From Dryomyza anilis (lineage: Eukaryota; Arthropoda; Insecta; Diptera; Dryomyzidae): DNA of 64,000 bases. The notes under the pieces were generated by a model. The model was not told where the DNA came from and made no database searches. It was given only the letters and a program-made list of their open reading frames with translations. The DNA is taken from NCBI GenBank assembly GCA_951804985.1, contig OX638131.1, positions 58,434,351 to 58,498,350 on the forward strand, read 5' to 3'. The position numbers and the translations under genes are program-made. Below are positions 1 through 56,230 of this stretch, one piece after another (position 1 is the first letter of the stretch; each line of letters opens with the position of its first letter).

Positions 1-2254
1 GCCACATGGTTGTCGCCCGATCAAAAAACTCGAAATCAAATTGATCACGTTGTGATTGACGGAAGGCACGCTTCGAGCATGATGGACGTACGCACTATCC
101 GAGGTGCCAATATGGACTCGGATCATTACCTTGTAGCAGCCAAGGTCCGCACACGCTTAAGCGCTGCGAAGAACGTACGGAACCAAACGCAGAGAAAGCT
201 AGACGTCGGAAAGCTGCAATCACAACAGACAACGCAAGCCTTTTCCACTCGACTCTCACACCTGCTTAGACAAAGCATTCCTCCTCTCGATGATATAAGC
301 GCGCAGTGGAATCATATCTCCTGCTCTATGCGTACGGCTGCCGAAGAGGTGCTTGGATTCCAACACCCCCTGAGGAATCAGTGGTATGACCAAGAGTGTC
401 GCGCGGCCACTGCAAAGAAAGACGCAGCGTACAAATCCACCCTGCAGTCAGTAGCTACGCGAGCTATACAAAGAGAAGAGGAGGGAAGAGAGACGTCTTT
501 TCAGGCGTAAAAAAGCGAGGCAGAAAGACGTGAGTGTGAGGAGATTGAGATGCATGGGGACAGGAATGAGGCTCGAAAATTTTTCGAGAAAAAAAGACGC
601 CTAGCCGGAGGTTCAAAATCCGGAGCCTCTTCTTGTAAAGATGAGAACGGAAATCTAGTGACAGATATCCAGAGCACACTGAAAATATGGAGGGATCACT
701 TCTCTAGACTGCTGACCGGTGATGATGACCGCAATTCCACCGATAGAGAAGTAAACCCGGCAACCCCAGTACTTGATGACGACGTTGAGATTCCGCCACC
801 CGACCATGACGAGGTCAGAACAGCCATTACTCGGCTGAAAAACAACAAAGCCGCAGGTGCTGATGGCCTGCCTGCTGAATTGTTTAAGACCGGAGGCGAA
901 GAGCTAATAGAGAGCATGCACGAGTTCGTAAGCAGAATATGGTCGGATGAAAGCATGCCAAGTGACTGGAACCTCAGTGTACTCTGCCCAATCCTTAAGA
1001 AAGGGGATCCCACTAGCTGCGCCAACTACCGTGGGATCAGCCTACTCAATATCGCATACAAGGTTCTATCGAGCGTATTATGTGAAAGACTGAAGCCCAT
1101 CGTCAGCAGACTGATTGGACATTATCAGTGCGGCTTCAGACCTGGAAAGTCCACCATAGACCAGATTTTCACATTGCGCCTAATCCAGAAAAAGACCATA
1201 GAAAAACAGATCGACACCTACCACCTATTAGTCGACTATAAAGCCGCCTTCGACACTCCGATAAGGGAACGATTATACGCCGCAATGTCTGAGTTCGGTA
1301 TACCTGCGAAACTTATAAGGCTTTGCGGATGACCCTGAGCAACACACGTTGCTCATTGAGAATAGGAAAAGACCTCTCCGAGCCATTTCATACCGAACGA
1401 GGTTTCAGACAGGGTGACTCCCTATCGTGCGACTTTTTTAACTTATTGATGGAGAAAATAGTTCGAGCTGCCGAACTCCGTCAAAGCGGCACTATCCTAG
1501 CCGACTACACTAGCCGACGATATTGATATCATTGACAGGAGCACACGAGCAGTCAGCGCAGCATTCTCCAGATTGGAGAAAGAGTCGCGTCGAATGAGAC
1601 TAGCGGTGAACGAGGACAAGACGAAGTTCCTTGTGTCAACAAGCAAAAAAGAGTGCAGCCTTTTGGACAAAAAGCTGATTTTGACACCCACAAGTTCGAC
1701 ATTGTGAAGGACTTCGTCTATCTGGGATCTAGCATAAACAGCAACAACGACGTCAGCCAGGAGATCAAACGGAGAATAACTCTTGCCAACAGGTGCTACT
1801 TTGGGCTCAGTAGGCAATTGAGAAGCAGAGCCCTCTCTCGCCGGACAAAAATAACGCTCTACAAGTCACTCATCATGCCCGTCCCACTTTATGGTGCAAA
1901 AACATGGACGCTGGCCTCCACCGATGAGAGAGTACTGGGAGCGTTCGAGAGAAAGATTCTCCTTAAAATCTTTGACCCTATCTGCTTTGCTAACGAGTAT
2001 CGAATCAGGATGAACCACGAGCTGTTTGAGTTATTCGACGACATTGACATAGTCAAGCGCATCAAGATCCAGCGGCTTCACTGGCTAGGTCATGTCGAAC
2101 GAATGGATGAAAACACTCCAGCCAAGAAGGTGTGCTTGAATCGAAACTCGAAGGTGGACAGCGTAGAAGAGGGCGTCCAAATCTGCGTTGGAAAGACCAA
2201 GTTGAGGACAACCTGGCAACACTTAATATTTCTAACTGGCGTCAGCGCGCGTAA
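1..2254 (+). pseudogene. Degraded non-LTR retrotransposon (LINE) ORF2: endonuclease and reverse transcriptase
   Basis: The left end is cut by the window. Positions 10-480 encode the end of an APE-like endonuclease with the motifs NQIDHVVIDGRH and DSDHYLVAAKV. Positions 550-1332 begin the reverse transcriptase: NYRGISLLNIAYKVLS, QCGFRPGKSTIDQIF and the motif A aspartate in VDYKAAFD. Motif C survives only as LADD near 1507-1518, where most relatives have YADD. The C-terminal part (1653-2254) has YGAKTWTL and WLGHVERMDE, and its last frame reads GRRRRGRP-like basic sequence before TAA at 2252-2254. A short GTAA repeat follows. The frame is broken at about 475-550, 1320, 1505, 1670 and 2160, so no active enzyme is encoded. 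The family is a jockey/RTE-like LINE; I cannot fix the clade. It lies antisense to AGO3. Confidence 0.85.
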
Positions 2255-2264
2255 GTAAGTAAGA

Positions 2265-2580
2265 TGTGAATGCCGCATTATACCAACATAAGGCGAATAT
2301 CATCAGAGTGGTTGGCAACTCTGCCCGAAAAGTTTCCAAAGCATGACAGGCACACGCATACACTCGCAACATAGATGAGCGAAAGAACAAACGTCAAAGG
2401 TGACATTTGCCTCGTGGTTCGATTGTACACTCACTTCACATTTACATCTGCAGCAGCACAACGTTCATTTTCTGATCGCCATAACAGCTCTTTAAATTAC
2501 TTAAAACTTAAAGTTAATAAATATTATAACGTTTGAACTTAAACCTAAAACAACCACGCGTGTTTTATTTATATTATACA
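2265..2580 (+). repeat. LTR of an unidentified LTR retrotransposon (single copy, 316 bp)
   Basis: The block starts TGTGAATG directly after the LINE tail and ends ATACA, giving TG...CA termini. It holds a poly-A signal AATAAATATT near 2517 and a GT-rich stretch ahead of the end. It is followed by a possible primer-binding or leader region (TTTGTCTAGAAGCGAC). No partner LTR was seen in the window. The boundaries are read by eye, and the superfamily (BEL or gypsy) is not settled. Confidence 0.5.
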
Positions 2581-2735
2581 TTTGTCTAGAAGCGACAAAT
2601 TGGACGGTAGCAGACCGTTGCAGCAGCAGCGCAAACGCAGCGTAAATGCAGCGAAGCAACCACCAAAGAAAGAGACTCTAGCTAGCTGCATCAACAAGAG
2701 AAGTCGCCCGTGTCCCAAGTGGACACCACATGTAC
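2581..2735 (+). pseudogene. Leader and gag-start stump of the LTR element
   Basis: Sequence just inside the LTR is clearly richer in G+C than its neighbours and reads as a basic, glutamine-rich peptide (SRPLQQQRKRSVNAAKQPPK). That is plausible for the start of a retrotransposon Gag. It is cut off abruptly at about 2736 by the end of element A. No capsid or zinc-knuckle motif is left, so the assignment rests on position and composition. Confidence 0.3.
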
Positions 2736-2738
2736 ACG

Positions 2739-3005
2739 CTGCAAAAAAAAGACCGCTCCCAAACATAAAAAACAGGCATTAGCATGTATGTTTGGAATTT
2801 ATTTTAAACAGAACAGATTGTATAGAACAGATTGTACAGAACAGATTGAACAGATTGTATAGAAACTTGAACAGTGTTGTAATGAGGTCTGATTTACATT
2901 ATGATATAACGGAAACATTTTGATGTTGCGCCTTAAAATGATGTATGTTCTAATAAAAACATAATAATTACTACATCCAAACAAAATAAATAACTGAATT
3001 GAAAC
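2739..3005 (+). repeat. Element A terminus, first of two direct copies
   Basis: Starts ACACGCTGCAAAAAAAAG, followed by a CTCCCAAACATA block. The same ~265 bp is repeated, diverged, at 3006-3275 (both copies share AACAGTGTTGTAATGAG and AACATAATAATTACTACATC). Related ends occur at 28996, 32335-32380 (inverted) and 50207-50267 (inverted), so this is the end of a dispersed element. Confidence 0.6.
2812..2862 (+). repeat. Short minisatellite, AGAACAGATTGTA-type, about four copies
   Basis: Four near-identical 10-15 base units (CAGAACAGATTGTATAG and variants) stand head to tail inside the first element A end. The second copy of that end lacks the expansion, so it arose locally. Confidence 0.6.
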
Positions 3006-4397
3006 ATACACGCTGCAAAAAAAAAAGGGCTCTCCAAAACATAATTTTGCAGGCATTAACATGTATGTTTGGAATTTTATGAAAACATAATATATAATTG
3101 ACTGATAAATCATTTGTAAACAGGGTTGTATTTAGGCTTGAACAGTGTTGTAATGAGCTCTGACTTACATTATAATATCACAGAAACATTTTAATGTTGC
3201 CCCTTAAAATGGTGTTCTAATGGAAACATAATAATTACTACATCCAAACAAAATAAATATTTGAACCGAAACATAAATATGTTTAAAACCTGATTTTGAA
3301 ATATGTTTCCAGTGAAACATATCAGTTCTTTCAGTACAAAAAGTAGTATGTTTGCATAGAAACATATTTAAATATTTTTGGAAAAAAATCCTGAAAATAA
3401 AATAAAATGTTGTTATTTTTTTATTAAAAATCTTTAAACATGCACAGTGGAAATTATAATAATAGAATTCATATACAAATTTTTAAATGCATAAATAAAT
3501 AATTCGTTTAAAACTGCAAGTACAAGTGACAGCATCAATGAATGCACAATTGCACCAGCAGACGCTAAACCAGGCAATCCAGGCTCGCTTTATATTTGGT
3601 AGAGTTACAGTTGATCTCAGTACAGCACATAGCGTAGGCAAGGAATTCACGGAGGCTTATGTAAAAAAACATGCCAAATTCTGTTTGAAAATCGAAACAC
3701 TGATTTTTATTTGTGGTTTTTTCACATTAGTTTCAGAAATTGTATACTGCACTATATTATACTCTGTTACTATTAGTATTTTTTAACACAATTTATATAT
3801 TTATTTAATTTACAAATAACAAAATTATTACCGACGCGAACACGTTTTTTCAACGAACAACAAAAGACACGTACGCAGAAAATTATATACAAGAATTCAT
3901 ATTTTGTTTCTTTTCGAACATCAGTATGTTTAAAATGACCCTATACATACTTCAAACGACGACAAAAGAGACGTAGGTAGAAAATTGTTCTCAACGAGTG
4001 CCAACTTCGTATACAAGAAGAATGTTGGAAGAATACATTTATTTAAATCCTATTTCTTTTTTGTTTGTTTTTAAACATCAATATCTTCAACCGTTGTATT
4101 TAGATTTGATTAGCATTTTCTGTGTTTCGAAACATAGTTTTAACCAAGTAAATTGCCAAGAAACAGTTTATTCAAATGCAATTAAAATTGTATGTTGATA
4201 TTGTAACATATTTATGGTAAATTTAACAGATTCTGCTGGACAATATAATAATATTTACACGTGAACAAAAATATATCCAATTTCGATTATAATTTAATTA
4301 CACTTCATTTCAATACATGAGTGGTAATTTCGTATTACTTTTTAATTACATTCAAACATATTCAAACAAATCTTTTCTATCCGTGTACAAATGTTCT
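3006..4397 (+). mobile_element. Element A, longest direct copy; its right part is carried into the tandem array
   Basis: Runs from the ACACGCTGC end to an end reading TTTTCTATCCGTGTA. A diverged direct copy lies at 28996-30213 and an inverted one at 30214-32470, where ~100 bp inverted repeats (ACACGGATAG ends) close the element. It has many ATGTTTC/GAAACAT inverted motifs in its left third and a GC-richer, coding-like stretch at 3520-3665. I see no transposase motif. The tandem array begins inside this copy, in the T-run at about 3411-3421. A non-autonomous DNA transposon is the best guess. Confidence 0.55.
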
Positions 4398-4694
4398 TCA
4401 ATATATCAATTAAATAATTTTATAAAACATTTAGTTTACTTATTTAATTTCCTGATTTATCAAATTTTATCAATTATGTAATTCATTTCAAAATTTTATT
4501 TCACAGTTTTATTAAAAGGTTATTTTATTCCATAATTTCTTTCAAAATGTTCAATTTTTTTTTTAATGACAATTTTCATAATTCCATGATTTTTTGCTTA
4601 TTAAAATTCTCAAATATTTCTTTTGTTTTATATCAAACATTCACAGAATTTTATTTTATTTTACCGAACACATTTTTTCCACTATTTTTCACAA

Positions 4695-5380
4695 TAGATC
4701 ACATGGGAAATTTTAAAGTAGGTGTAATTATGATTGTTAGGATTATCAAAATTATAGTCGGTCTAAGCCGACTATAAATACCCTACACATATGTGTGGTT
4801 ACCACTCAAAGTGATATATAGGTCACCAGGGTATACGAATCCTGAAAATAACTACAAACATTCAATCGCTGAAGAATTTCCATTCATTTGATACCCATAT
4901 TTACAAATGGGTAGGTTTACCGAATTTCGATTTTTTTTTGTGAACCACAAGTCTTTTCGCCGGAAAACATTATTATCATGTATTTGAGCATGATATCAAT
5001 ATATATTTGACCAAAAAAAGTTTACCTAAGCACGTATACATAAAAATTGATCTTTATATGTACATTTTATATGAGGTATTTGAACATAAGTGGTCGGATC
5101 ATAGGTCACAATGGACCGATCTCGCCAATTTTTTCGCACATACAGCGTAGGTATATTAGTAATCTAAGTTATAAGTTTCATTTATCTAGCTCTTCAATTT
5201 TAAAAGTAGTAGGGATTTCAACAGACAGACGGACAAACAGACGGACATCGCTAAATCGACTCAGGAGGTCATGCTGATCAAGAATATATATACTTTTCCA
5301 TACCGGAGATGCTTCCTTCTGGGTGTTACAAACGGCGTACCAAACTGAATATACCCTTTCACTCTTAGTGTAGGGTATAA
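4695..5380 (+). mobile_element. mini-me/DINE-1-like element, unit 1
   Basis: Begins TAGATCACATGGGAAATTTT. It contains a perfect hairpin TATAGTCGG-TCTAAG-CCGACTATA at about 4754-4777, an ATACCCTACAC motif repeated inverted at the far end, an RGAC microsatellite (CAGACAGACGGACA) near 5224-5248, a conserved core (CTCAGGAGGTCATGCTGATC) and a TA microsatellite (ATATATATAC). It ends TGTAGGGTATA. RGAC and TA tracts flanking a ~33 bp core are the hallmark of dipteran mini-me elements, now grouped with DINE-1/Helentron-derived repeats. It is non-coding. The left limit is fixed by comparison with the dispersed copies at 26981, 30264 and 33135. Confidence 0.7.
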
Positions 5381-5843
5381 AAATATTTTCCATGATCCAA
5401 AATAGTTATTTCTTCCAATATTAATCTCCATCCAATACTTCTCGTCCCTTGGGAGTTGATGTATGGTCCGAAAACCGGCTGCGCCAAAATGTTGAAGTCC
5501 TTATTTGACTTTAACATTCTTGATCCTTTTATACTTACATGTTTTTATTATTTAAAACTACCGAGTCTTTTTTACTTTAAGACACTTTATTTCGTTTCGA
5601 AAGTTGGTACACTTATACTTAACACTAGGTCTTAGAACTAGTCACTTCAGCTTATCGGAAACAATTCATTTTAGTCTATACGTAACTTTTACATAACACC
5701 TCGCATTCTAATAATTTCACAATAAATCATGCTAAAATAGTCAGCATTACTAAGTGACTCATAGGCTAAAATAACTAAATCAGCATTTATTTGTATGATC
5801 AGAGTGACCTATTTATTTATTGTGGGCGTACTATTCTGGATAT
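5381..5843. other. Unclassified block between mini-me and hAT in each unit
   Basis: About 460 bp without a credible reading frame, repeated in every unit and again at 25917-26373. The part around 5470-5500 (GGCTGCGCCAAAATGTTG) resembles sequence at the edge of LTR elements, with TGTTGAAG as a possible LTR start. I cannot define a second end, so no element is called. The last 8 bases (CTGGATAT) are the target-site copy of the adjoining hAT. Confidence 0.4.
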
Positions 5844-7988
5844 TAGGGATGTCGATCCCGGAACGTTTTCGCAAACACGGGATTTCGAGATTTCAAAATT
5901 ACAATCCCGGGATTAATCCCGGGATTTCCACAAATTAAATCAGTATTCTTTAAAGCATTTAAAATACTAACTTTAAGATTTTCAAACACAGCTGTGGAAA
6001 AAAAAGTGTTAACCTTTATCCAATCTTAGGGTGAAATTTTTCGATTGAGTAGATATTTTACGTTATGTTCCATTATTACGCTGTCCAACAAAATAGGATT
6101 ATTATTATATTTGAATACATTTGTGGCAAACGATAATTTTACGATATCGAAACGAGATCATTTATAGGCTTTAATTGTCGTTTTCGATAATCTATAATGA
6201 TACGAGAACGATAGGGTTTTCGATAAAAACGAACCTGTCTAAAACGATATCGTTGTTTTTGTCGTCAAAGATATCGAGATGATATCATAAATGAATTTAT
6301 TTTCGATAAACAAATTTTATTTGTTCAGAAATTTTTATTTTTTTGACAAAAATTATGAACTATTTTATAGAATTTAAAAATTATCGTCAAATGGTTTGTA
6401 GGGAAATTATAATTTTTTTTTATAACTTTTCCCTTTTGTTATAAATATTTATTATATTTAAACAATACCAATATTTGATTAAACGCGAAAAATCGTTTCC
6501 AAAAGTTATTCAAAACATAACCAAACATTTTTATTCTGATTATAAAACTTTCGAAATACCCACTTTCTGTATTACTAAAAGAACAACGAAACGAATATTT
6601 TCAAACTTTAAAATTAATATAAAATTACGTCACTTTCGTCTAATATTCTTTCGTTTTCAAATACAGAAAGTGGCACTGCACTTAATTAAACTTTTAATGA
6701 TAATTTTTTACCATTTTTAATGTTCAACTTTAACTTTTTTAAAATAAGTTACAGTTCTTAATTATATAAAATAATTGATTTATCGAAAATATTGTTGATT
6801 TTGTTGTGTTCGCGACATTTCATTAATTTGGAAACAAATCATTTGACTTTGGATTGTAATTGAATAACAATTAAAAAAAATCGTTATATGAGTCACTTGA
6901 CTTTGAAACTTATAAATTTGTTTAAAATTACGTCCCTTTCGTCTAATAGTTAATAAATAAAAAAAGTAAAATATTTTAAGTGAATTAAGTAATTGAAGAG
7001 TGGGTGCAATAAGAAAAAGTAAGTTTTGAGATATTTGAGTTTAAATTATAGGAATGTTTGTATTTCATAATTTAATGAACCGATATTATTAGTTCGGCGT
7101 ACCAAACTGAATATACCTTTCACTCTTAGTGTAGGGTATAAAAATTTTCAATATCAGAAAATTTAAATTTAACAAGTAAAAAAATGTTGCTTTTATTTAA
7201 TTTAGTATTTATAACTTTAGTATTTATAACCAAGAGTCGTAACTGGGGTTAAAAGGGGATACATGACACTACATAACAATGCATAGAAATTCTTTTTTCT
7301 AATACGTCTTTTATTCATACAATATTTCACTTTTGAAAAAAAATTAATTTATTTTTTTTATATTTCGCAAATAAAATTTTTCACGCATAAAAGCTAATTT
7401 GTATATTGTAGCGCAAGGTGTTATGGGACTAATATAGAAAAGTTATTTTCAGTATTTTCTTTTGTTGAATTTTTAAAAATACAGGAAGACCAAAATAATA
7501 ATTTATAAAAATGGGCTATTATTTTGAAAACTTTACCATTTTCAGAATCAGTGCCATAAATGTATCCAATATTTGTTGAAATTTTTACTACACCAAAATT
7601 ATTGTAGGGCAGTTTAGTTAAAAAATAATTATAAGACGGAATTAGATTCATCTAACGAAGCTGGAAGCATTCACGTTATGTTGTTTTTAATAATGCATAC
7701 AAAATTTACATTTAGTTTATTTTATATTTAGAAAAGCAATAATATAGATAAGTGAATCAAAATAAATGACAATAAGAATATTTTAAAAATATGTTAGTGC
7801 CTTAGTTTAATATTACTCATTGACACAGTGAATAAATGCATGATTGTTTATTTTATTTTCATAAATAGCAGCACTTTTAATACTATTTATAACATATTTC
7901 TAATCCCGAAAATCCCGGGATTTCTGTTTTGAATCCCGGGATTATTTCGGGACTGATTTTAGGCTCAATCCCGGGATCGACATACCTA
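5844..7988 (+). mobile_element. Non-autonomous hAT element, unit 1 (2145 bp)
   Basis: Terminal inverted repeats TAGGGATGTCGATCCCGG (left) and TAGGTATGTCGATCCCGG (right, read outward) differ at one base. The flanks CTGGATAT and CTGGCTAT form an 8 bp target duplication with one difference. TIRs starting TAGGG plus an 8 bp duplication define the hAT superfamily. Both ends carry clustered CCCGGGATT motifs, likely subterminal transposase sites. No transposase frame remains. A ~50 bp fragment of the mini-me 3' end sits inside at about 7096-7141. Confidence 0.85.
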
Positions 7989-9441
7989 CTGGCTATGTTA
8001 AGTGTTGTGCCAATACAATTAAATGCTGTCTGTGTTTAACATGCATAATTCTTAACCCTAAAAATATGCCATCCAGAAAAATATACTAGTTAAAATTATA
8101 TTGTGAATCGTAAACCTAGAGCATTTCAATGCATTTTATTAAATTTTTCAACATTTTTTTTTATTTTTTATTAAAAATCTTTAAACATGCACAGTGGAAA
8201 TTATAATAATAGAATTCATATACAAATTTTTAAATGCATAAATAAATAATTCGTTTAAAACTGCAAGTACAAGTGACAGCATCAATGAATGCACAATTGC
8301 ACCAGCAGACGCTAAACCAGGCAATCCAGGCTCGCTTTATATTTGGTAGAGTTACAGTTGATCTCAGTACAGCACATAGCGTAGGCAAGGAATTCACGGA
8401 GGCTTATGTAAAAAAACATGCCAAATTCTGTTTGAAAATCGAAACACTGATTTTTATTTGTGGTTTTTTCACATTAGTTTCAGAAATTGTATACTGCACT
8501 ATATTATACTCTGTTACTATTAGTATTTTTTAACACAATTTATATATTTATATAATTTACAAATAACAAAATTATTACCGACGCGAACACGTTTTTTCAA
8601 CGAACAACAAAAGACACGTACGCAGAAAATTATATACAAGAATTCATATTTTGTTTCTTTTCGAACATCAGTATGTTTAAAATGACCCTATACATACTTC
8701 AAACGACGACAAAAGAGACGTAGGTAGAAAATTGTTCTCAACGAGTGCCAACTTCGTATACAAGAAGAATGTTGGAAGAATACATTTATTTAAATCCTAT
8801 TTCTTTTTTGTTTGTTTTTAAACATCAATATCTTCAACCGTTGTATTTAGATTTGATTAGCATTTTCTGTGTTTCGAAACATAGTTTTAACCAAGTAAAT
8901 TGCCAAGAAACAGTTTATTCAAATGCAATTAAAATTGTATGTTGATATTGTAACATATTTATGGTAAATTTAACAGATTCTGCTGGACAATATAATAATA
9001 TTTACACGTGAACAAAAATATATCCAATTTCGATTATAATTTAATTACACTTCATTTCAATACATGAGTGGTAATTTCGTATTACTTTTTAATTACATTC
9101 AAACATATTCAAACAAATCTTTTCTATCCGTGTACAAATGTTCTTCAATATATCAATAAAATAATTTTATAAAACATTTAGTTTACTTATTTAATTTCCT
9201 GATTTATCAAATTTTATCAATTATGTAATTCATTTCAAAATTTTATTTCACAGTTTTATTAAAAGGTTATTTTATTCCATAATTTCTTTCAAAATGTTCA
9301 ATTTTTTTTTTAATGACAATTTTCATAATTCCATGATTTTTTGCTTATTAAAATTCTCAAATATTTCTTTTGTTTTATATCAAACATTCACAGAATTTTA
9401 TTTTATTTTACCGAACACATTTTTTCCACTATTTTTCACAA

Positions 9442-10094
9442 TAGATCACATGGGAAATTTTAAAGTAGGTGTAATTATGATTGTTAGGATTATCAAAATT
9501 ATAGTCGGTCTAAGCCGACTATAAATACCCTACACATATGTGTGGTTACCACTCAAAGTGATATATAGGTCACCAGGGTATACGAATCCTGAAAATAACT
9601 ACAAACATTCAATCGCTGAAGAATTTCCATTCATTTGATACCCATATTTACAAATGGGTAGGTTTACCGAATTTCGATTTTTTTTTTGTGAACCACAAGT
9701 CTTTTCGCCGGAAAACATTATTATCATGTATTTGAGCATGATATCAATATATATTTGACCAAAAAAAGTTTACCTAAGCACGTATACATAAAAATTGATC
9801 TTTATATGTACATTTTATATGAGGTATTTGAACATAAGTGGTCGGATCATAGGTCACAATGGACCGATCTCGCCAATTTCATTTATAAGTTTCATTTATC
9901 TAGCTCTTCAATTTTAAAAGTAGTAGGGATTTCAACAGACAGACGGACAAACAGACGGACATCGCTAAATCGACTCAGGAGGTCATGCTGATCAAGAATA
10001 TATATACTTTTCCATACCGGAGATGCTTCCTTCTGGGTGTTACAAACGGCGTACCAAACTGAATATACCCTTTCACTCTTAGTGTAGGGTATAA
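9442..10094 (+). mobile_element. mini-me/DINE-1-like element, unit 2 (33 bp deletion)
   Basis: Same architecture as the unit 1 copy; the segment between CGCCAATTT and the TTTCATTTATC box is shortened by 33 bp. Confidence 0.7.
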
Positions 10095-10557
10095 AAATAT
10101 TTTCCATGATCCAAAATAGTTATTTCTTCCAATATTAATCTCCATCCAATACTTCTCGTCCCTTGGGAGTTGATGTATGGTCCGAAAACCGGCTGCGCCA
10201 AAATGTTGAAGTCCTTATTTGACTTTAACATTCTTGATCCTTTTATACTTACATGTTTTTATTATTTAAAACTACCGAGTCTTTTTTACTTTAAGACACT
10301 TTATTTCGTTTCGAAAGTTGGTACACTTATACTTAACACTAGGTCTTAGAACTAGTCACTTCAGCTTATCGGAAACAATTCATTTTAGTCTATACGTAAC
10401 TTTTACATAACACCTCGCATTCTAATAATTTCACAATAAATCATGCTAAAATAGTCAGCATTACTAAGTGACTCATAGGCTAAAATAACTAAATCAGCAT
10501 TTATTTGTATGATCAGAGTGACCTATTTATTTATTGTGGGCGTACTATTCTGGATAT

Positions 10558-46093: not shown

Positions 46094-47016
46094 CACACAG
46101 AACACTGATTTGTTGCGGCAACCAAATAAATTGCCAGACCGAATCATTCGGATGCGGCAACAACTGATATTGTAGTTGCAACAACCTCGGTTCTGGCAAC
46201 CACCAAAACGATGAACATGAGTTTGTGACAACCTCCATGTCGGTAATCATGAGCTTGTGACAACCTCCTAATCGGTGAACATGAGGTTGTGGTAACCTCC
46301 AAATATGTGATTATGAGGTTGTGACAAGCTCCAAATTGGTGAGCATGAGGTTGCCGTAACCGCCTAGTCAGTGAGTATGAGGTTTTCTAAACCTCTGATT
46401 GAAATTTTATTATAACAAAGTTTTTTTTTATATATAATATATATAAAAAAAACTGCGAAAATATGTCGCGCTCACAATTTAGAAGTATATCTACTAATTC
46501 CTGCTCCCTGAAAAAAAAAAACACTATGAAAAGATACATGAATCTGAGCATGCATTTTTTTTATTTCCTCATAACTAATAAATAAAAAAAAAACTATTTC
46601 TATTGGCACATATGGTCACATATTTTTTAATTCACTAGCAAATGAACAATTTATATTAAATAAATATATTATTATATTACTATTTGTGTATTTATTTCGC
46701 AATGTAACCTAATTAATGAATTTCCTATTTATTTCGACATGTTAAAATGTTTGACGTTTCTGCATGTATCCATAATTTTTGGCATGAAACTGGCAAACAA
46801 ACTGCTGGTAACAAATGTCAAATTTGACAAAATGATAAATGCAATCATGAGGTTACGGCAACCGAACGTGCAGTTGCGCGGGCGGACTAACATTTCAGTT
46901 AGAGTAAAAAATAGTACGTTCATTTAATGACATGAGGTTACAACAAATGTATTTCGGTTGCAACACTGAAACGTTGGTTCAATTAACCTCATGCCAAAAG
47001 AGGATTTTTCTGTGTG
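46094..47016. mobile_element. TA-target TIR element with internal palindromic repeats, 923 bp
   Basis: Ends CACACAGAACA and, outward from the right, CACACAGAAAAA, flanked by TA at 46092-46093 and 47017-47018. Besides the repeat array at 46210, single CATGAGGTT motifs occur near 46847 and 46931 and inverted (AACCTCATG) near 46985. No transposase frame. Confidence 0.75.
46210..46401. repeat. Minisatellite, six 31-33 bp units each holding a palindrome
   Basis: Units begin at about 46210, 46243, 46275, 46307, 46339 and 46371. Their consensus core GAGGTTGTGACAACCTC is a near-perfect palindrome with a one-base centre. Units differ from each other, so the array is not new. It is likely a cluster of transposase or host-protein binding sites. 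Confidence 0.8.
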
Positions 47017-47705
47017 TACTTTTAGCACACAGTAACATTAATACTTTTCATATAGTTCAAAAGTTCTTTTTTCTTACTGTTAATACCAGATAGTGGCTGT
47101 TTGTGAAATATCCAATCAATCCGTAATTCACTGAACTCAAAATAGTTACATTAAATGGAAATAAAATTATTAGGTATAAATAATAAAAAAAATAAAAAAA
47201 GTTTAAGTTTATAATTATATACTAAGAAAACCAAGATGATTATCAGAAATATCACAGCCCTAAATATCAAATTATTTACAAATTATTTAGATCGTCTTTG
47301 AGACAGACATCTCTCAACCATCCGACAAATACGATAAATATTGCTAGCAACCATCTTTCAAATTTATGATTACGTATTGCAACCATCAATTAAAAATTTC
47401 ACAAATAGGAGGATAGTTAAGGAATATTTGGAAAAGGTACTCCATTAAAATTCGCGGAGTAATTTTTATTGAATTAAAATAAAATGAATCAAATGTATTT
47501 TATTTATTATAGAATTAAAACAATATTTTAGTTATACACCGACATCGTCTTTATAAATCCTTTGAACGTAAAATTCTACAACGACTAGAGACTTCTTCGC
47601 GAAAGAACCAAGTCCGTCCGGAGATGCTGTCATCAAAGTGGGCATTCCACAGAAAACGTTACCAAGGTGTGATATATTAAAGTTAAACATATTGATTCCG
47701 TTTAA

Positions 47706-48076
47706 CCCAGTCTGCCATGTTTCCGAGACCTCCGATTTCTCGAATTTTTATCGAATAACTTCGAGAAAAAAGTTCGATCTCGTTGCTTTATCGATTTTAA
47801 TTTTTATAATTTCTCTTACATTCAAATTCATTGACAAGATACGATATATAAACATTTATCGCATCAAAATCTTTAATCATTTTTTTCGTCGATATCGTTC
47901 CGATTTCAAAAAATTTCTCGTCCCGAGAAAACTCCGACAAAACGCATCGATATCTACCTACCGTGTAGGTCCAATTTGACGCTTGATACCGTTACGAGAA
48001 AGTGTCCGATATCGTGTGATATCTCCTTTTTCTCGCATTGATCTCGTAACGATTTCGATACGAATGGCATACTGGG
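47706..48076. mobile_element. MITE nested in the long-TIR element, 371 bp
   Basis: Ends CCCAGTCTGCCAT and, outward from the right, CCCAGTATGCCAT. Rich in CGATATCG and CTCGTAACG-like palindromes. A related end (CCCAGTATACCA) lies at 62355. The target duplication is unclear. Confidence 0.6.
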
Positions 48077-48369
48077 AATGATTTTTAGGATAAGAAATAC
48101 TTCTTATTTCATATTCTGTGATCAGAATTTACCAAAATGCACGGAAAATGTGTTTTTTTCTCAATTAAAATCAAATATTTTTTTGAAATTTATTATAGTA
48201 CAAAATTGAGGCAATATATGAAACACTGTAGTTTCGTTGTTTTGAATCCGAAAAAAATTGAATAGTACAATTTTAAAGGTAATTTGTTTGCAAAAGTATT
48301 CCACATATTGGTGATGAGTGGTTCAAAGTACTGACAATTAACCAAACTAAAACTGTTTTTTTGAGTTGT

Positions 48370-49359
48370 AACGCCCGTCACAAAAAACATAGTAAAAGTT
48401 ATTTTCGAACTATTGTGCAAACGTACAACTGGAAATTTTGTAGAAGTAAAGATTTTTGTCGTATCTATTCAATTTTTATACTCTTTGGTCTCATAGATAT
48501 TCCAGATGGTTGCTATATCCATCCAAAATATTGTAACGCCCGTCACAAATAACAATAATCGCAAAACCAAAAAACTGCAAAATTATATATTTGTTAATTA
48601 AATTGTTATTAAACCATATAAAAAGTGGTAAATATTCCAAAGTATTCAATAAGCACAGATAAAAAAGGGAAATTTCAAACCTTACAAAAAAAATTATAAA
48701 AAAATTCCAAAAAAAAACATTATTTTCGATAAGCGAAAATTATTTACGTAAGCTTTATGTAAGGAAACGGACTACAAATGATGCAGACAGAGTAGTTATT
48801 AAAAGAATAGTTATATATAACATATTTTTTTCAAAACGAAATGTTTAGTTTTCCACATAAATTATATGTCGACGGTGTGCCTTAAAATAACGATTTACCA
48901 TTCCTACCACAAAATATATATATAAATAATTTGAAATATCATGTATATTTGTATAGAATTTGTACAGATAACCCCCGTCACAAAATGTGTAACACCCGTC
49001 ACAAGTTTTGATACTTTATAAATCAGTGATCAAAGTAAGCATTTTAGAATTTTATTATAGAGGGGAAAACTCCCATTATTAATGAAGTAATTGAGATATA
49101 CTTCTTCTCCATAGTCCGATTAGTTTAGCTAAAATTTAATACTTTGTGGAGTAAACTCTATTTTTTGAAATAGTACGTGGAACGCCCGTCACAGTATTTA
49201 ACTTTAAATTTGTAGAAAGATATGGACCTATGGAAAAAAAAAATTTATACATGCATAGAGAACCATAAGATCTATCCTCAGCATCCTAAAAATATATCAA
49301 TCCTTTTTTATTTATCAAATGAGAAGGTTTTTAATCGTACGAATGCAACGCCCGTCACA
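48370..49359 (+). repeat. Dispersed 13-base motif AACRCCCGTCACA, six copies, one orientation
   Basis: Copies at 48370-48382, 48535-48547, 48970-48982 (AACCCCCGTCACA), 48991-49003 (AACACCCGTCACA), 49181-49193 and 49347-49359, all on the plus strand. The motif stands out as GC-rich islands in ~75% AT sequence. No copies were noticed elsewhere in the window. Confidence 0.8.
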
Positions 49360-50206
49360 ATGGAATGCCCCAAAAGAAACCCTGAAAAGAAATAATTTTC
49401 CACTTCGCGCTGATAATTTCAATCCCACGAAATTTTATTTTTACTTTTACCATTAAAATGTAATATTTGAGTTTTTACACCATTGGATTTACTTAATTGT
49501 TGTGGATAAATCGAGTGTAAGGAAAAAGTACGCCATTATCTTTTTTGTAGTAGTTAAATGTCAAAATAAGCCAAGAGTTTTGTTGCAAATGTTCAATAAC
49601 TCAGGATGTTTGCTATCAGTTAACTGTAAGTATCTCAATTTTCATTGCAGTTGTAACTATCTGCATATATGACATATTTAAATAATACTAAGAGTTTTTG
49701 AGTTATGGGATGGTAAAAAAGAAAATAACATTTCCTGGGATTGAAATTATCAACACGTGATAAAAAATTATTTCTTTTCAGAATTTACTTTGATGACAGC
49801 ATCGCCGGGGGACTTGGTTCTTCTGCGAAGAAGTCTCAAGTCGTTGGACAATTTTACCTTCAAAGGATTTATTAAGACGATGGCGATGAATAACCAGAAT
49901 ACGTTTTGATTCTAGAATAAATAAAATACATTTATTTAATTTTATTGTAATTCAATAAAAATTACTCTACGAATTCTAATGGAGTACCTTTTCCAAATAT
50001 TCCAAAACTATCTTCCTATTTGTAAGATGTTAAATTGATGGTTGCTATAAGTAATCGTAAATTTAAAAGATGGTTGCTAGCAATATTTATCGTATTTGTC
50101 GAATATTTAAGAGATGGTTGTCTCAAAGACGATCTAAATAATTTGTAAATAACTTGATATTTAGGGCTGTGATATTTCTGTCTTTGTTTTCTTAGTGCAT
50201 AAAGCT

Positions 50207-50267
50207 CTAAATATATATGTAATGCTTGCAAAATTATGTTTGGGAGAGCCCTTTTTTTGCAGCGTGT
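50207..50267 (-). repeat. Isolated element A terminus
   Basis: Inverse of the ACACGCTGC end with TTTGGGAGAGCCCTTTTTTT. It abuts the long-TIR element. Confidence 0.6.
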
Positions 50268-50275
50268 AGCTTTTT

Positions 50276-52675
50276 CAGTAAAAACACTGTCAGCAGTTTT
50301 GCACTGCATAGTCAAACTCTTAGCGAACTTCATTTTATTACCATATACAAACATTAATTTTACCTTTTTTTGTCTGTTTGGTACATCATAACATTTTAAA
50401 GAATATGTTTCCGACATCCCCCCGAGTATGTTAAGACTAAAATAAAACAAATCTTAATATATTAATTTAATCATGATCTCATAAAGGATATATTGTTATA
50501 TATGAAAGTTCGCATACCCCAATATGACACAGGGTAAGCGTTTGAAAAAATTATTAAAATTTCGTTTAATGTCTGTGTGTTTTCAAATCAGTTTCAAATA
50601 TAAAATAAATGCTATTTTAAACGCTTTCTATTTATTTGTGAATGATATGAAAATTACATTATCATAAAAGGGCAGTGAACATTAGAAACAAAAATGTAGT
50701 GACGCTAAAAACATTATTTTTTTTATGATTGCAAGATAAACCCTTACAAAAGTATACCAACGAGCGTCCAAATCTGATAGCTTGTCGAAATCTATTAGCA
50801 TTTGGACTTCTGTGAATCTGTTAAACAATATGCCGACCGCCACGGCAAGCCGTGATTTCACTCCCGAATGGCATTCGCAAGCTTGAAATATACAAGCTTC
50901 CAAAATCACACATCCACCACATTTTGGCTGTTGTCATCGATATCGTACAGCAGCCTTGGAAGCTCTGACTTGAACTCGAAGTCAGCGAGTCTACGAAATT
51001 GGTTGGATGACACAGATGAAAAGAAAATGGAATGGAAAACTAAAATATGAATTAATACAAAGATTGTGCAAAAAAGCACGAAACTCCAGAATAAAATGAC
51101 AAAATATATCAAAAATTCACTTGTTTGAAGTTGACATATGATTTAAGTGATAGCAGCCATCAAAGTAAATAAAAGTCTTAGTATGCAGATCACAAATAAA
51201 TATTTCGACGTGTATTTTCATGTTTTTTGAGCAATCTTTGTATTGATTCATATTTTAGTTAAGCAAATTAACATTATCCTTCATAATTTTGTCCATTTTT
51301 TAAAGTTTTATTTTGCCCAGGATACAGTTTTAAGGATGTTTTGGTTATTACTAGAACAACTTTTTGTAGATACTATGTGCAATCAAATCAATACAAAATA
51401 TATTAAATATTTTACAATTTTGTTCCAATTAACCTCTCTAATACGAATACAAGCTTTAAATTCAGTAACTTCAAAAAAATATTTTGATTTTGTAAAATAT
51501 TCGGTAGCACTACTATTATTTAAGGTAATTTTTAAAATCTGGAAATATGGAAGAATTATACGTCGTTTTAATCAGAAATATCCAGTATATGTAACAATAA
51601 AAATACTTTGTTGTTCTTAAACAACAAGGCGATCAAAGAGGCGATAATATAATTTATAGATAGCCACTACTATTTTTTTTTGCCCACAGTTGAATCTTTG
51701 ATTTAATTGAAACTTTAAATAATCTCAATTTAAATCTCATCTTTACTTTTTGAAAATGTGAAATATATTCAATTTTTTTACCACATCTCTTATTGATTGT
51801 TGGGCTTAGAACACATTACTTTCGCCGCAAATTTAAGATTTATAAATCCTGATTTTCGACCAGATTCAAGTTTACTATTTAAGAAGATGGTCTCTCGAAA
51901 CCGAATTGTAACACACAAGCAAGCAATAATTGCATGCAGTGTTGAACGGTTAGCTAATTGTTAATTGTCCACAATTTCTTTTCCCACTTTTTCTAATTTT
52001 TTTTGTTGACGAATGATCGATCACTTATAACTGAAAACTAGTTAATTTTTTTGTTTGTCATAAATCAGAGAATTTTTGAATTTGTGGGATTTTGTGGAAT
52101 TTGTAAAAATACTTTCGTTTACACCCTTTAGATATTTCATAAACAATGATTTCAGTACGAATTAGCTAAAAAAAAATGAAATATACATTGTCATTATAAT
52201 TGAGATAGGTCAATTCATTGTCAATGGAAACAAACGACAGAAAGTTCATTGTACTAGAGGTACAGATAGCAGTGTTGTCACTAAAAATTATAATTATTAG
52301 TAGATTGGACAAAAAATAGTGGTAGATTTCACAAAATTATAGTAGCTTTTTATACTTTTGCAAATACGTAAAATATAGAATTTTTATATATTCTTTATGT
52401 ATATATTTGACTAATTTGATGAATAAAAAATGGCCGATATTATAATTTTAGAACAGTTCAATTGTATAATCAAACTTAAACAAATTATATATTTTCTTTA
52501 ACAAATGCTTTGGCTATTTTTATGTCACATTGCCAGACCAAAAAAAAAAATACAGAAAAATTAAACAGTATTGCCATAATTACTTATATATATATATATT
52601 TTTATTTAGTATACTAAATTAAACAATTGTTTTAAAAATTTATTAAATTAATACAAATTATAACATAATGTCCGC
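50276..52675. other. AT-rich intronic DNA, no confident gene
   Basis: The one stretch that does not look random is 50690-51020. It is GC-richer, and its minus strand gives RRLADFEFKSELPRLLYDID and, in another frame, a segment with CHSGVKSRLAVAVG and DFDKLSDLDARWYTF. These may be remains of a transposon or gene exon, but I recognise no family. A TA microsatellite lies near 52586-52600. Otherwise nothing is seen. Confidence 0.35.
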
Positions 52676-53343
52676 ATCGTCGATGAAGACGTCTTTCTGA
52701 TCCTTGTTGTTAATTTTGTTCACGAATTTCCTGTTGTGTCGCTGCAGATGTACGAAACGTGTATGGACGCACGTGCACACCTGATTTGATTTTCGACTTC
52801 TTGAAGCACTTAAATATTTTGTTGCCCAGATCTTAATTAGTTGTCATTCCTGAATTTTCAAAGTGTCCTATAACAGAAGTTTATGATCAATGAAATAGTC
52901 ATATTTTTGCAGACCACATACCAATGTGTTGTCCTGTATCCATCCAGCGCCTGTGTTTTGCTTATGTCTAGCGAATAAATTTGCATCCAGGCATGCTAGT
53001 GAATGGCGACTCCGCATCTGCAAAACAACTCCAGCGGCGCGGCGTGCATTTTTTGTTCTACAATGGCTTGGAAGACTGCACGAATGTGCGCCAATGCGCT
53101 CGATGTGTGTCTCGAATTAAAACTTTCACTATTTTTTCCATGTAACAAATCACCTTAATTACTTTCCGTTTATTTTTCTGTGGCTTCTAAAAACAACCTG
53201 CAATAAGACATTTTGTTTTAATGGAAAACATAAACAAAAATCAAACCTATAGCTATCCCCTTCTTACCTATGACGTTGGAAGAAAGTCTGCTTCCGATGT
53301 GTTTGTGAACATGCACATTTCTTTGATAGTGTGCGAACCAGTT
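52676..53343 (-). other. GC-richer island with exon-like fragments on the minus strand, unidentified
   Basis: Minus-strand open pieces include RHNRKFVNKI...KDVFIDDADI ending at a stop near 52670, and a longer one across 52880-53060 (LACLDANLFARHKQNTGAGW) bounded by plausible GT/AG sites. GTAAGAAGG near 53268 looks like a splice donor, and TATCGATG-type motifs lie just upstream at 53343-53360. A small nested gene, a gene fragment or an old transposon are all possible. I do not recognise the protein. Confidence 0.25.
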
Positions 53344-53740
53344 CGAAATATCGATGACTATCGGTTAGCGATTTTTTGCTGGGTATTCATTACATCGATG
53401 TATTTTTTCGATACATCGAATCACTCTTAAATTCATATTTGCGAATCTAAACTATCTAAATTTAATTAAATTTTATTATTTATGGAATTCTTTTTGAAAT
53501 TCAACACTTTAAATTACCATTTGCTTCATACATGGTTTTCGTGTCTTTCTCAAAATGACATAACATAGACTTAGACATTTTTGATTCCCAACGCCTTAAT
53601 TATTTTGTATAATATTTGACATATAAATCTTTTAATTTCATCAATAAATTTAAACCTAATAATTTTTCATTCGATGCATCGAAAACATCGATGTTTTTGT
53701 TCGATACATCGGAAAACATCGATGTAACGAGTCATGTATT
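53344..53740. promoter_or_regulatory. Cluster of ATCGAT motifs
   Basis: AATATCGATGAC, ACATCGATGTATT, CGATACATCGAATC and, at 53670-53730, several ACATCGATGTTTT/CGATGCATCGA palindromes. TATCGATA-like sites are known in flies as DREF-binding elements, but the palindromic arrangement fits transposon ends equally well. Confidence 0.35.
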
Positions 53741-54069
53741 ATATCGACCAAAATACCGATGTTTTTTTACTAATGAGTAAATAGAAGTCAGATTTTTTTC
53801 TTTTACTCGTTCGTGAAACTAAAAGTGTGCTTCCCTATTTATGCGAATTACGCATAAGTGAGGCACTATGAAGAAACATTTATGTGATTTTCTGAACTCT
53901 GGATTACGCATATGTTGCAAATGTTTGGTCCTATATTTCGATAATTTTTGATATCGGAATTTTTCTTATATATTTATTCCAGATTTAAAATTTTGTATTA
54001 TCTTATGCATAAATCTTGTCGTTTTTGCACAATTACTTAAATATAAATTATTAAATATAAATTATTTAC

Positions 54070-54253
54070 CCGACACTGAATTGCCTTTTTGTACCGCGTC
54101 GTGATACGAGTCGATACCACATAGCATGACGTTCTTAAATGGTATTTTAACACACCAGAGAGCTCCGCCTAATTTGCAATTTATTTGTAATGCTATTTTT
54201 TGAACAATAGACCTATTTTTATTTTCATTTGATAAGGTTTTTGAATTAATGAC
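54070..54253 (-). CDS. AGO3: AGO3 coding exon 3: MID end and start of PIWI domain
   Basis: 184 bp after a CTCTTTTCAG acceptor (AG at 54254-54255). It encodes 61 residues plus one base and continues the frame of exon 2. It has QKIALQINCKLGG and FKNVMLCGIDSYHD; the Asp of GIDSYHD (about residue 669) is the first catalytic residue of the slicer site. The exon ends NSVS plus G at a GGTAAAT donor (GT at 54068-54069), and an in-frame TAA follows in the intron. The next exon should carry the rest of PIWI, about 185 residues with the other catalytic residues. I cannot find it at lower coordinates in the window. Confidence 0.9.
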
Positions 54254-54308
54254 CTGAAAAGAGTTTAAATTATTGCTTTATTTAGATTATCTTATTATAA
54301 TAATGTAC
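54254..54308 (-). other. AGO3: AGO3 intron 2 (55 bp)
   Basis: GTACATTATT...CTTTTCAG, a short intron of typical fly size; splicing joins PSQ to VINS without loss of frame. Confidence 0.88.
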
Positions 54309-55723
54309 CTGAGATGGTATGGGCATTTCTGCACAGCATACCTTTTTAATCGCTGCATATCTATCATCTCGCATTGTTGGACATATACATACGACAATTT
54401 GAACTCCCTTTTTAATGTTATTTCTTAAAGCGAACACAAATGTATCTACACGATCATTCTCCAAAACAACAATTTTAGGTTTATTTACTTGGACTCCTAG
54501 TGCATTTGAATTACGATCCATTAGTTCTGTAAAAGACTTTGCGACTCTCGCATCATTTTTACAATGAAGAAGTATCCAGTTATGCAAATGAACCACTTCT
54601 AAAAGTTCATTATTACATGCGTATTTTGAAAAATCTGCATTCGTTCCAGCCGAAAAATTACGCTTAGCAAAATAAATATTTTCTTCTTCGAACTGTCTTC
54701 CAGTAATATATTCGCATGATCGTTTTAATGTTAGACCCCAATTATTCAATATATCTGTAGCCTCTTTATTGTTGTTTACATTGTTGTAAAATTTTTCAAG
54801 AGACAGCAGTCTTTGATTTGGAGATACTCTAGTAAATGTTGCGATTTCTCTCATAAGTTTAAAATCGGATCTCATATCATCTCTTAATCCTGTCAAATAG
54901 CAGACTTCAGGCAGCAAACAAAAAATAAAATCTTCCGTTTTCATTTCATCTGAACCTCTTTGTTTTTTAATACTTATTAATAAAGGTTGCTTTTTATCGT
55001 TAATTTCTATGTTATGATTAATACGGTAATATTCAGCATAAGATATTTCCGATGTTTTATACTTGAATGTTGAAAGAGGATTTTTCTCAAAGCATATATC
55101 ATCAATTCTATAAGTTCGGTTATTATAACGTGTTATAACAATAGCACCGAGTAGTGACTTTTTGGCATTTTCTTGAAATTGATTTCTGTTTTGTTGATAG
55201 ATTTCAATTAATATATCTAAAACAGTTTTTTGACAAAGAAGACGATGGGATACATCACAACAGAGCATTAAACCACCTTCTAATTCATCTACTGCAGTTA
55301 CATATCCGGGCCATACTTCCAATTTATGATGCGGAATAATTTTCGGCATTGTAGGATCAAACTGTTTTCGATCAAATCGTACATAATTCAATGTTTTCAT
55401 TACTCTATCGAAAAGTACGTTAAATAAATGTATGCAATTCTTAAGCGATTCTTTTCTTTTAAATAAAACTCTTATTTCTATATCTGTATTGGTGCCTTTC
55501 GAAACAAATGTTGTCAATTTATTTTCTAGAAGTATGGGCAGATATAAAGTAACGCCGTCGAACGTCTTAGTACCACCGATTTTATCTCGATGTTCATTAA
55601 GATACTTCATGCGAAGGTTTATTGAATCCACGCTGGGTGCAAACCGAACTTCATACACATATACACCTTTTTTAGAATCTGAACCCAATCGAATATAATT
55701 ACAAGCTAGTCTTACAGCGATAC
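54309..55723 (-). CDS. AGO3: AGO3 coding exon 2: N, PAZ and MID domains
   Basis: 1415 bp between TATTTAG (acceptor) and CTCAG|GTACAT (donor), frame fully open. With exon 1 it gives residues 150-621. It opens with GIAVRLACNYIRLGSDSKKG. EVWPGYVTAVDE leads into PAZ (about 312-429: TRYNNRTYRIDDI, SYAEYYRINHNI, CLLPEVCYLTGL). MID follows (about 539-621: DDRYAAIKK and EMPIPSQ, part of the 5'-phosphate pocket of the guide RNA). GGTKTFDGVTLYLPILL and FDRKQFDPTMPKIIP fit AGO3 better than Piwi or Aubergine from memory of the fly proteins. AGO3 binds mostly sense piRNAs in germline nuage and slices antisense partners in the ping-pong cycle. No break or stop was seen. Confidence 0.93.
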
Positions 55724-55782
55724 CTAAATAAAAAATTAAAGATCATATGAAAACTTATTTTTATTAAAAAAAAAAAAAATAC
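55724..55782 (-). other. AGO3: AGO3 intron 1 (59 bp)
   Basis: GTATTTTTTTT...TATTTAG; phase 1, completing a glycine codon across the junction. Confidence 0.88.
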
Positions 55783-56230
55783 CTTTTGAACCATGCTTTA
55801 AAACAGGTGGTTGAGTCTCTTCTTGATATTTTTCAGAATCGTCTTGAACTATTTCTAATTTTTTTGAATTATGGGAAACGTTTATTGCTGAATTCTGATC
55901 TTCACTCGACGAATACACGTTTTGTTGTTCTGGAAATTTAACCCTTCCACGTCCAATAGGCTCTAGTTCAGTTCCCTTGTCACATGAAGAACTATAGATG
56001 TCCATAGCTTCCAAAATTCGAGCTCGACCACGGGCAACAGATATTGAAACATTTGAATATGAAGAAGTGAGTTCGTCGATGAGTTTCCCTCGACCAACAC
56101 GTCGATATTCACCACTAGAAACCGGACTTTTGGAACCCACGCCACTATCTTTTGTTGACTGATCTGTTGTGGTCGATTCTGCTGCAGTACTTTGTATAAT
56201 GTTTCTTAAAGATATTCCACGTCCTGCCAT
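55783..56230 (-). CDS. AGO3: AGO3 coding exon 1: RG-rich N-terminus
   Basis: 448 bp, 149 codons plus one base. The start ATG (MAGRGISLRN) follows AAGAGCA. Arginine-glycine motifs at residues 3-5 (GRG), 45-48 (VGRG), 67-72 (ARGRAR) and 93-96 (GRGR) are candidate symmetrical dimethyl-arginine sites, which in PIWI proteins recruit Tudor-domain partners. NVSISVARGRARILE matches the AGO3-type N-terminus. The rest is serine-rich and polar, likely disordered. The donor is CAAAAG|GTATTT (GT at 55781-55782). An AG at 56247-56248 after a pyrimidine-poor tract suggests that a further 5' UTR exon lies upstream. Confidence 0.9.

What the first reader, a model, noticed from the sequence alone, without database searches (positions are those of the whole stretch)
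1..56230. AGO3 broken by a repeat-filled intron of more than 54 kb inside the PIWI domain
Three clean exons end just after the first catalytic Asp, at a proper donor, and the remaining ~185 residues are not found in the 54 kb to the left. A core piRNA gene whose transcript must cross a transposon graveyard could depend on the silencing system it helps run. Fly AGO3 is known to be heterochromatic with large introns; the composition of this intron is what is new here.
Basis: partly seen in the sequence, partly recalled or inferred. Interest (0 to 1): 0.8.

Follow-up and report, generated by a model that had tools for sequence, protein, structure and literature searches.

The report
Intact AGO3 gene with giant introns
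The fly gene for the transposon-silencing protein AGO3 is not broken: its seven exons are all present, spread over about 309,000 bases because four introns in its cutting domain have grown huge, at least three of them with transposons and one also with a freshly multiplied local repeat, an exaggerated form of what is already known in fruit flies.

Summary
The three AGO3 exons are real (window 56230-55783, 55723-54309, 54253-54070, minus strand, GT-AG introns). The gene is not broken. The window is C2:58434351-58498350 of a 656.6-Mb assembly. The missing exons lie in order, on the same strand and scaffold, further left, giving an open 898-residue AGO3 with stop codon. Introns measure 59, 55, 88,094, 51,691, 50,892 and 115,096 bases; the coding span is 308,584. 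The presumed catalytic residues D669, E707, D739, H873 lie in exons 3, 4, 5 and 7, 306 kb end to end. No second AGO3 was found. A non-coding 4.7-kb unit and its fragments make up about 48% of intron 3; full units are at least 99.85% identical, and full matches to a 1.5-kb piece of it were found only here. D. [quoted passage not shown] So: a new member of a known kind. Dependence on silencing is plausible, untested here.

The parts
55783..56230 (-). AGO3 exon 1 (448 nt, from the ATG); C2:58490580-58490133
   Evidence: homology to fly AGO3, GT donor
54309..55723 (-). AGO3 exon 2 (1415 nt, holds the Piwi_N and PAZ matches); C2:58490073-58488659
   Evidence: 72% identity to Stomoxys AGO3
54070..54253 (-). 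AGO3 exon 3 (184 nt, in the PIWI domain; D669 codon begins at window 54112); C2:58488603-58488420
1..54069 (-). Part of intron 3 inside the window. The whole intron is C2:58488419-58400326, 88,094 nt. Exon 4 is at C2:58400325-58400160, exon 5 at 58348468-58348321, exon 6 at 58297428-58297180, exon 7 at 58182083-58181997, all left of the window
3417..25486 (+). Window part of the 4.7-kb tandem array in intron 3 (blocks B and C); block A lies left of the window at C2:58412747-58431247
39233..45400 (+). Decayed BEL/Pao-type LTR retrotransposon pieces, antisense to AGO3
   Evidence: Peptidase_A17, RVT_1, DUF5641 in separate ORFs; the ORFs at 39233-39937, 44470-45087 and 44867-45400 gave no Pfam match and are assigned by adjacency
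511..2258 (+). Reverse-transcriptase piece outside the BEL element, judged LINE-like by eye, antisense to AGO3; a second copy lies at C2:58409841-58411585 in a larger duplication within intron 3
   Evidence: (RVT_1 in the first of the two ORFs, no match in the second)
55724..55782 (-). Intron 1, 59 nt
54254..54308 (-). Intron 2, 55 nt

Best explanation
This is the fly's single, intact AGO3 gene. By family knowledge it encodes the PIWI-clade slicer of the ping-pong cycle. Four of its six introns, all inside the PIWI domain, have grown to 51-115 kb: introns 3-5 by transposon insertion (intron 6 was hardly read), and intron 3 also by recent tandem amplification of a 4.7-kb non-coding unit. The exons, splice sites and catalytic tetrad are kept. 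RNA polymerase most likely transcribes the whole ~309 kb, and the introns are spliced out as in Drosophila AGO3, probably with help from the exon junction complex. Shown here: exon order, open frame, splice sites, no second copy found, array. Inferred: transcription, splicing, germline role, and growth of the introns as tolerated, not selected.
For: Exons 1-6 were found by comparison with six fly AGO3 proteins. Exon 7 came from a motif that occurs once in 656.6 Mb, on the expected strand and side, and it was found again by protein search. Spliced, they give 898 residues and a stop, with all six introns GT-AG. Pfam: PAZ, Piwi and Piwi_N over their cut-offs. The best solved relatives are PIWI proteins, aligned to the last residue. 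Other PIWI loci of this genome match Stomoxys AGO3 at 26-44% in the PIWI domain, with shorter upstream pieces at 21-60%. Two loci that I take for piwi/aub span only 10.6 and 6.5 kb between their outer matches, so the giant size is not shared by those PIWI genes. Predicted AGO3 models of other flies break or skip at the same junctions in 7 of 18 hand-picked models.
Against: No RNA data. A 200-N gap lies in intron 6 at C2:58291721-58291920, so exon 7 is linked through a scaffold join, and about 100 kb of intron 6 was not read. Array units B1 and B2 are 100% identical, so the assembled copy number may be wrong. An AG just before the ATG may be a splice acceptor, so a 5' non-coding exon may be missing from the model (sequence).
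Confidence: 0.88

Rival explanations
1. AGO3 is truncated here: the transcript ends in intron 3 and the protein lacks most of the PIWI catalytic centre.
For: No exon 4-7 is in the window. A D. grimshawi gene model stops close to the same junction (residue 688 against 682), so early termination inside this intron cannot be ruled out as an isoform.
Against: All four missing exons are present, in order, with open frame and good splice sites, and no second AGO3 was found that would relax selection on them. An unused 3' half would be expected to decay, but exons 4-7 match Stomoxys AGO3 at 59-76%.
Confidence: 0.04
2. The intron length is under selection or in use: the array or the transposons serve as a regulated timer or as a source of piRNAs, so that AGO3 output reports the state of heterochromatin and silencing.
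For: The same gene is giant in Drosophila and carries a satellite array in an intron there too (12 Rsp copies). AGO3 falls 3.4-fold in Lhr and about 2-fold in Hmr mutants. A review reports that piRNAs help to splice large introns in the locust (PMC9962485, passages). The array is young, local and almost uniform.
Against: AGO3 is unaffected in a D. simulans Lhr mutant. Heterochromatic genes gain transposon-filled introns in general (PMC7911463, passages), which needs no function. The array unit has no ORF beyond chance and the window no Rfam match. No small RNA data were available. OVO-type motifs upstream were not clearly enriched (4 in 2.17 kb against 1.0 per kb in the window).
Confidence: 0.12
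3. The extreme length is partly an assembly product: the array and the larger duplication in intron 3 are over-expanded, or haplotypes were joined.
For: Two units are 100% identical, and a 20.8-kb stretch is repeated at 99.5%.
Against: Units of blocks A, B and C differ from block to block by 3-7 substitutions and 34-79 gap columns. Without the unit and its fragments intron 3 would still be about 45 kb, and introns 4-6 do not depend on it.
Confidence: 0.1

Closest known systems
Drosophila melanogaster AGO3
   Same: Same protein family; pre-mRNA of ~150 kb with several large introns; mRNA level depends on the exon junction complex core (PMC4197968, passages); called peri-centromeric (PMC3961192, passages); 12 copies of the Rsp satellite in one intron (PMC8321551, passage).
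   Different: Here the coding span is about twice as long (308.6 kb), the array unit is 4.7 kb, and the chromatin state is unknown. Which D. melanogaster introns are the large ones was not found in what I read.
Transposon-expanded genes of pericentromeric heterochromatin (Ranbp16, CG8578 in the Drosophila virilis group)
   Same: Some introns grow many-fold by transposon insertion while exons are kept (PMC7911463, passages).
   Different: Those are not known to me as silencing genes; H3K9me3 enrichment was reported there and cannot be tested here.
Y-linked genes with gigantic introns (kl-3, kl-5)
   Same: Coding exons separated by huge introns that contain tandem repeats (PMC6508621, title and start of abstract in the listing; PMC8617248, passages).
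   Different: Those genes span megabases and are expressed only in spermatogenesis; here the introns are 51-115 kb, mid-scaffold, in a gene whose Drosophila relative works in ovary and early testis germ cells.
piwi intron 4 of Drosophila
   Same: An intron of a PIWI-clade gene whose splicing depends on the exon junction complex and which holds transposon insertions (PMC4197968, passages).
   Different: It lies in a compact, euchromatic gene.

Membership tests
AGO3 (PIWI-clade Argonaute) | Piwi_N, PAZ and PIWI domains in one open protein of ~900 residues | tested here: met
   898 aa; Piwi_N, PAZ and Piwi over their cut-offs
AGO3 (PIWI-clade Argonaute) | Slicer tetrad D-E-D-H | tested here: met
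   D669, E707, D739, H873 present; which positions are catalytic is recalled from Argonaute structures, not from a call
AGO3 (PIWI-clade Argonaute) | Closer to AGO3 than to Piwi/Aub or AGO1/2 | tested here: met
   Of the top 20 rows, 14 bear a name and 12 of these are argonaute-3 of flies (the other two: a hypothetical protein and a Piwi domain-containing protein); other PIWI loci of this genome match Stomoxys AGO3 much less well. The tree holds AGO3-type hits only, so it does not test this
AGO3 (PIWI-clade Argonaute) | Germline expression and ping-pong function | not testable with these tools
   No RNA or small RNA data
Heterochromatic gene with transposon-expanded introns | Introns of tens of kb filled with transposons and repeats, exons kept | tested here: met
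   Introns 3-6 of 51-115 kb; retroelement proteins in introns 3, 4 and 5; array. The repeat share of introns 4 and 5 was not measured, and intron 6 was read only for its first ~13 kb and about 1.5 kb at its end
Heterochromatic gene with transposon-expanded introns | Gene-poor, pericentromeric place | tested here: inconclusive
   AGO3 lies at about 50.6% of scaffold C2, but of 24 kinase places on C2 9 are in its middle half, p = 0.15; Rad21, by recall a heterochromatic gene of the same arm in D. melanogaster, is on another scaffold
Heterochromatic gene with transposon-expanded introns | H3K9 methylation / HP1 | not testable with these tools
   No chromatin data
Recursive splicing of long introns | Ratchet sites (pyrimidine tract, AG|GT) on the sense strand | tested here: inconclusive
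   Introns 3-5: 4 sense and 2 antisense loose matches, 1 of them (sense, window 53268) with a good tract; intron 6 not scanned

The most novel reading that the evidence does not exclude
AGO3 is a self-sensing gene: its slicer tetrad is spread over four giant introns whose transcription and splicing need working heterochromatin, so when transposon silencing fails the introns misprocess and AGO3 output changes, closing a feedback loop that has been kept across higher flies; the young array in intron 3 may be a local piRNA source.
Probability: 0.12. Interest if true: 0.75.

Novelty: new member of a known kind. Interest (0 to 1): 0.36.

Why it matters
It shows the AGO3 giant-intron state in a fly outside Drosophila, at exon junctions that some Drosophila gene models share, and it warns that AGO3 models which stop inside the PIWI domain can be annotation breaks and not lost genes. 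It also gives a clean case (one gene, four giant introns, catalytic residues in four separate exons, two other PIWI loci of the same genome compact) for asking whether a core silencing gene depends on the chromatin it helps to make.

Tried and rejected
Broken gene or pseudogene: rejected, since all exons were found. Second AGO3 copy: none found by family search (13 of 13 candidates scored) or protein search (24 of 24). Array as a genome-wide satellite: in the one search made, with a 1.5-kb piece, 9 full matches and 1 half match at 99-100% all lie in this intron; the 64 rows on other places are fragments of 31-519 bases, and only three of them, under 100 bases, exceed 94%. 40 of 4669 first-look candidates were scored, so a lower-ranked copy could be missed. 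Array as coding: longest ORF 109 aa, while 50 plain shuffles average 88 and reach 119. Structured RNA or tRNA in the window: none reported (the tRNA scan used the bacterial code). Recursive splice sites: inconclusive. OVO motif upstream: not clearly enriched. Shared heterochromatic neighbourhood with Rad21: not found. Gene-poor middle of the scaffold: not significant (the 24 places were typed by hand after merging close rows, and 128 of 428 candidates had been scored). Transposon strand bias relative to AGO3: of the 12 ORFs with a Pfam match lie on the plus strand (antisense to AGO3) and 3 on the minus strand (one of these a weak zinc-finger match); several belong to the same element and the ORFs were hand-picked, so no claim. 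Bacterial promoter scan: not applicable to a fly, ignored.

The fly was not identified. In a tree of 28 of the 120 listed proteins plus this one it pairs with an unnamed protein (100/99) outside the Drosophila, tephritid and calyptrate groups, with weaker support (81/94) for the deeper fork and warnings about long branches.
Full report
WHAT WAS CHECKED. The window is C2:58434351-58498350 of an unnamed 656.6-Mb assembly of 69 contigs. On the minus strand it holds three AGO3 exons: 56230-55783 (448 nt, starting at the ATG), 55723-54309 (1415 nt) and 54253-54070 (184 nt), with GT donors and AG acceptors and introns of 59 and 55 nt between them. A protein search with their product gave 451 proteins, 120 listed. 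Of the top 20 rows 14 bear a name; 12 of these are argonaute-3 of flies, at 58-65% identity; the top row has no name.

THE REST OF THE GENE. I compared six of those 120 proteins with 234 kb around the window. Exons 4, 5 and 6 lie to the left, in order and on the same strand. The last exon, 28 residues, was sought with a degenerate motif that has one match in the whole genome, again on the same strand and further left; a protein search found the same place. The full model is: exon 1 C2:58490580-58490133; 2 58490073-58488659; 3 58488603-58488420; 4 58400325-58400160; 5 58348468-58348321; 6 58297428-58297180; 7 58182083-58181997. All introns are GT-AG, and the frame stays open for 898 residues to a stop. 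Intron lengths are 59, 55, 88,094, 51,691, 50,892 and 115,096 nt; the coding span is 308,584 bases. Exons 1-6 lie on sequence without N. A 200-N gap sits in intron 6, and about 100 kb of intron 6 was not read, so the link to exon 7 rests on the scaffold.

WHAT THE PROTEIN IS. It has Piwi_N, PAZ and PIWI domains over the Pfam cut-offs, and it aligns to solved PIWI proteins up to its last residue. D669, E707, D739 and H873 match the Argonaute slicer tetrad; the meaning of these positions is recalled, their presence is read. They fall in exons 3, 4, 5 and 7, and the codons of the first and last are 306,385 bases apart. No second AGO3 was found. The other PIWI loci match Stomoxys AGO3 at 26-44% in the PIWI domain; shorter upstream pieces of two of them range from 21 to 60%. 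Those two loci, which I take for piwi/aub without a test of their own, lie on the same scaffold and span 10.6 and 6.5 kb between their outermost matches. So giant size is not shared by those PIWI genes.

WHAT FILLS THE INTRONS. In intron 3 a unit of about 4.7 kb, 27% GC, is repeated in three blocks (C2:58412747-58431247, 58437767-58452009, 58452007-58459836). The blocks and further fragments of the unit cover 42,512 of 88,094 bases at 95% identity or more. Six full units differ pairwise by 0-7 substitutions, that is 99.85% identity or more, and by 0-79 gap columns. A 1.5-kb piece of the unit has 9 full matches and 1 half match at 99-100%, all inside this intron. Of the 75 rows listed, the 64 on other places are fragments of 31-519 bases, most at 70-94% (40 of 4669 first-look candidates scored). 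So the unit appears to be built of dispersed repeats and to have been multiplied here, recently. The block structure also shows a larger copy: 58406228-58427052 against 58431247-58452009 at 99.5%. GTCY microsatellite tracts, which I recall as typical of DINE-1/Helentron elements, occur 13 times in intron 3, all on the minus strand; several are copies within the array, so they are not independent. Retroelement proteins were found by Pfam in separate ORFs: BEL/Pao in introns 3 and 4, other reverse transcriptases (LINE-like by eye) in introns 3 and 5, and LTR-type integrases in introns 4 and 5. 20 hand-picked ORFs were scanned in these two calls, 19 of them in introns 3-5; 12 of 20 gave a match at E 0.001 or better, 11 of them over a curated cut-off. 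The share of transposons in the introns was not measured: two searches meant for that did not complete. The phrase 'transposon graveyard' fits in part only: the array and a 2,512-base tandem pair at 100% identity in intron 4 are young.

HOW IT MOST LIKELY WORKS. A primary transcript of at least 309 kb is made and the introns are spliced out. Selection keeps exons and splice sites, and intron length drifts upward by insertion and tandem copying. This is inferred; there is no RNA evidence for this species. A scan for recursive splice sites in introns 3-5 was inconclusive.

WHAT IS KNOWN. Eight papers were opened, each by term search only, so passages were seen and no paper was read in full. [quoted passage not shown] no misspliced AGO3 was detected. 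PMC8321551: 12 copies of the Rsp satellite lie in an Ago3 intron. [quoted passage not shown] simulans Lhr mutant it is unaffected. PMC7911463 (AGO3 is not mentioned in it): heterochromatic genes gain transposon-filled introns and may come to depend on heterochromatin proteins. PMC9962485: in the locust, piRNAs are reported to aid splicing of large introns. So both the architecture and the idea of dependence have precedents. The D. simulans result speaks against a strong, general dependence. My searches showed me no title or abstract start that describes AGO3 introns in flies other than Drosophila; the library holds open-licence papers only, the lists are capped, and most listed papers were not opened.

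SHARED JUNCTIONS. Of 18 hand-picked AGO3 models, 7 break within three residues of a junction found here or skip exactly one exon: D. elegans at 621, D. kikkawai X3 at 623, D. mojavensis at 624, Pseudolycoriella at 738, D. rhopaloa and D. willistoni at 786, and D. kikkawai X2 lacking exactly 788-870, which is exon 6. Three more stop 6-8 residues past a junction (D. grimshawi X2, D. tropicalis, D. pandora); eight do not break near a junction at their C-terminal side. This suggests that intron positions are shared with Drosophila and that long introns there also break gene models. It does not measure intron lengths.

RESULTS AGAINST A HETEROCHROMATIC SETTING. AGO3 lies near the middle of its 115-Mb scaffold, as a pericentromeric gene of a two-armed chromosome would. 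But the kinase count gave no significant gene desert (9 of 24 places in the middle half, p = 0.15), and Rad21 lies on another scaffold. The setting is therefore possible, not shown.

VERDICT. The exons are right, 'broken' is wrong, and the giant intron is real and longer than thought. It is a new member of a known kind, with an unusual recent array as its one fresh detail.

Noticed in passing
window 58397-61030: A 2.6-kb element with imperfect 37-nt terminal inverted repeats (CAAGGATTGAAACC...), ends rich in AAACCG, and the same 8 bases ATTAATAC on both flanks: looks like a non-autonomous hAT-type transposon about 2 kb upstream of the AGO3 start codon.
   Followed up: partly
window 46189-46395: A minisatellite of 32-base units with 64- and 96-base periods in intron 3.
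   Followed up: no
C2:58387401-58392422 (locus L015): A 2,512-base tandem pair, 100% identical, next to a long BEL/Pao-type ORF in intron 4 about 8 kb from exon 4: very young.
   Followed up: no
window 5223-33612: 18 overlapping or repeated GTCY-tract matches, all on the minus strand, none expected by chance; recalled as a hallmark of DINE-1/Helentron elements. Several are copies within the array.
   Followed up: partly
D. kikkawai AGO3 isoform X2 (P0032): The predicted model lacks exactly the exon-6 residues in frame, which would join exon 5 to exon 7; either a prediction gap in a giant intron or a real exon-skipped form.
   Followed up: no
window 56247-56253: A TTTTTAG just upstream of the AGO3 ATG could be a splice acceptor, so a 5' non-coding exon may lie further right (sequence).
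   Followed up: no
C2:58498351-58518350 (L026, L027): The ORF list of the 20 kb to the right of the window shows long ORFs that look like retroelements by eye and no evident host gene; not searched against any family library.
   Followed up: no
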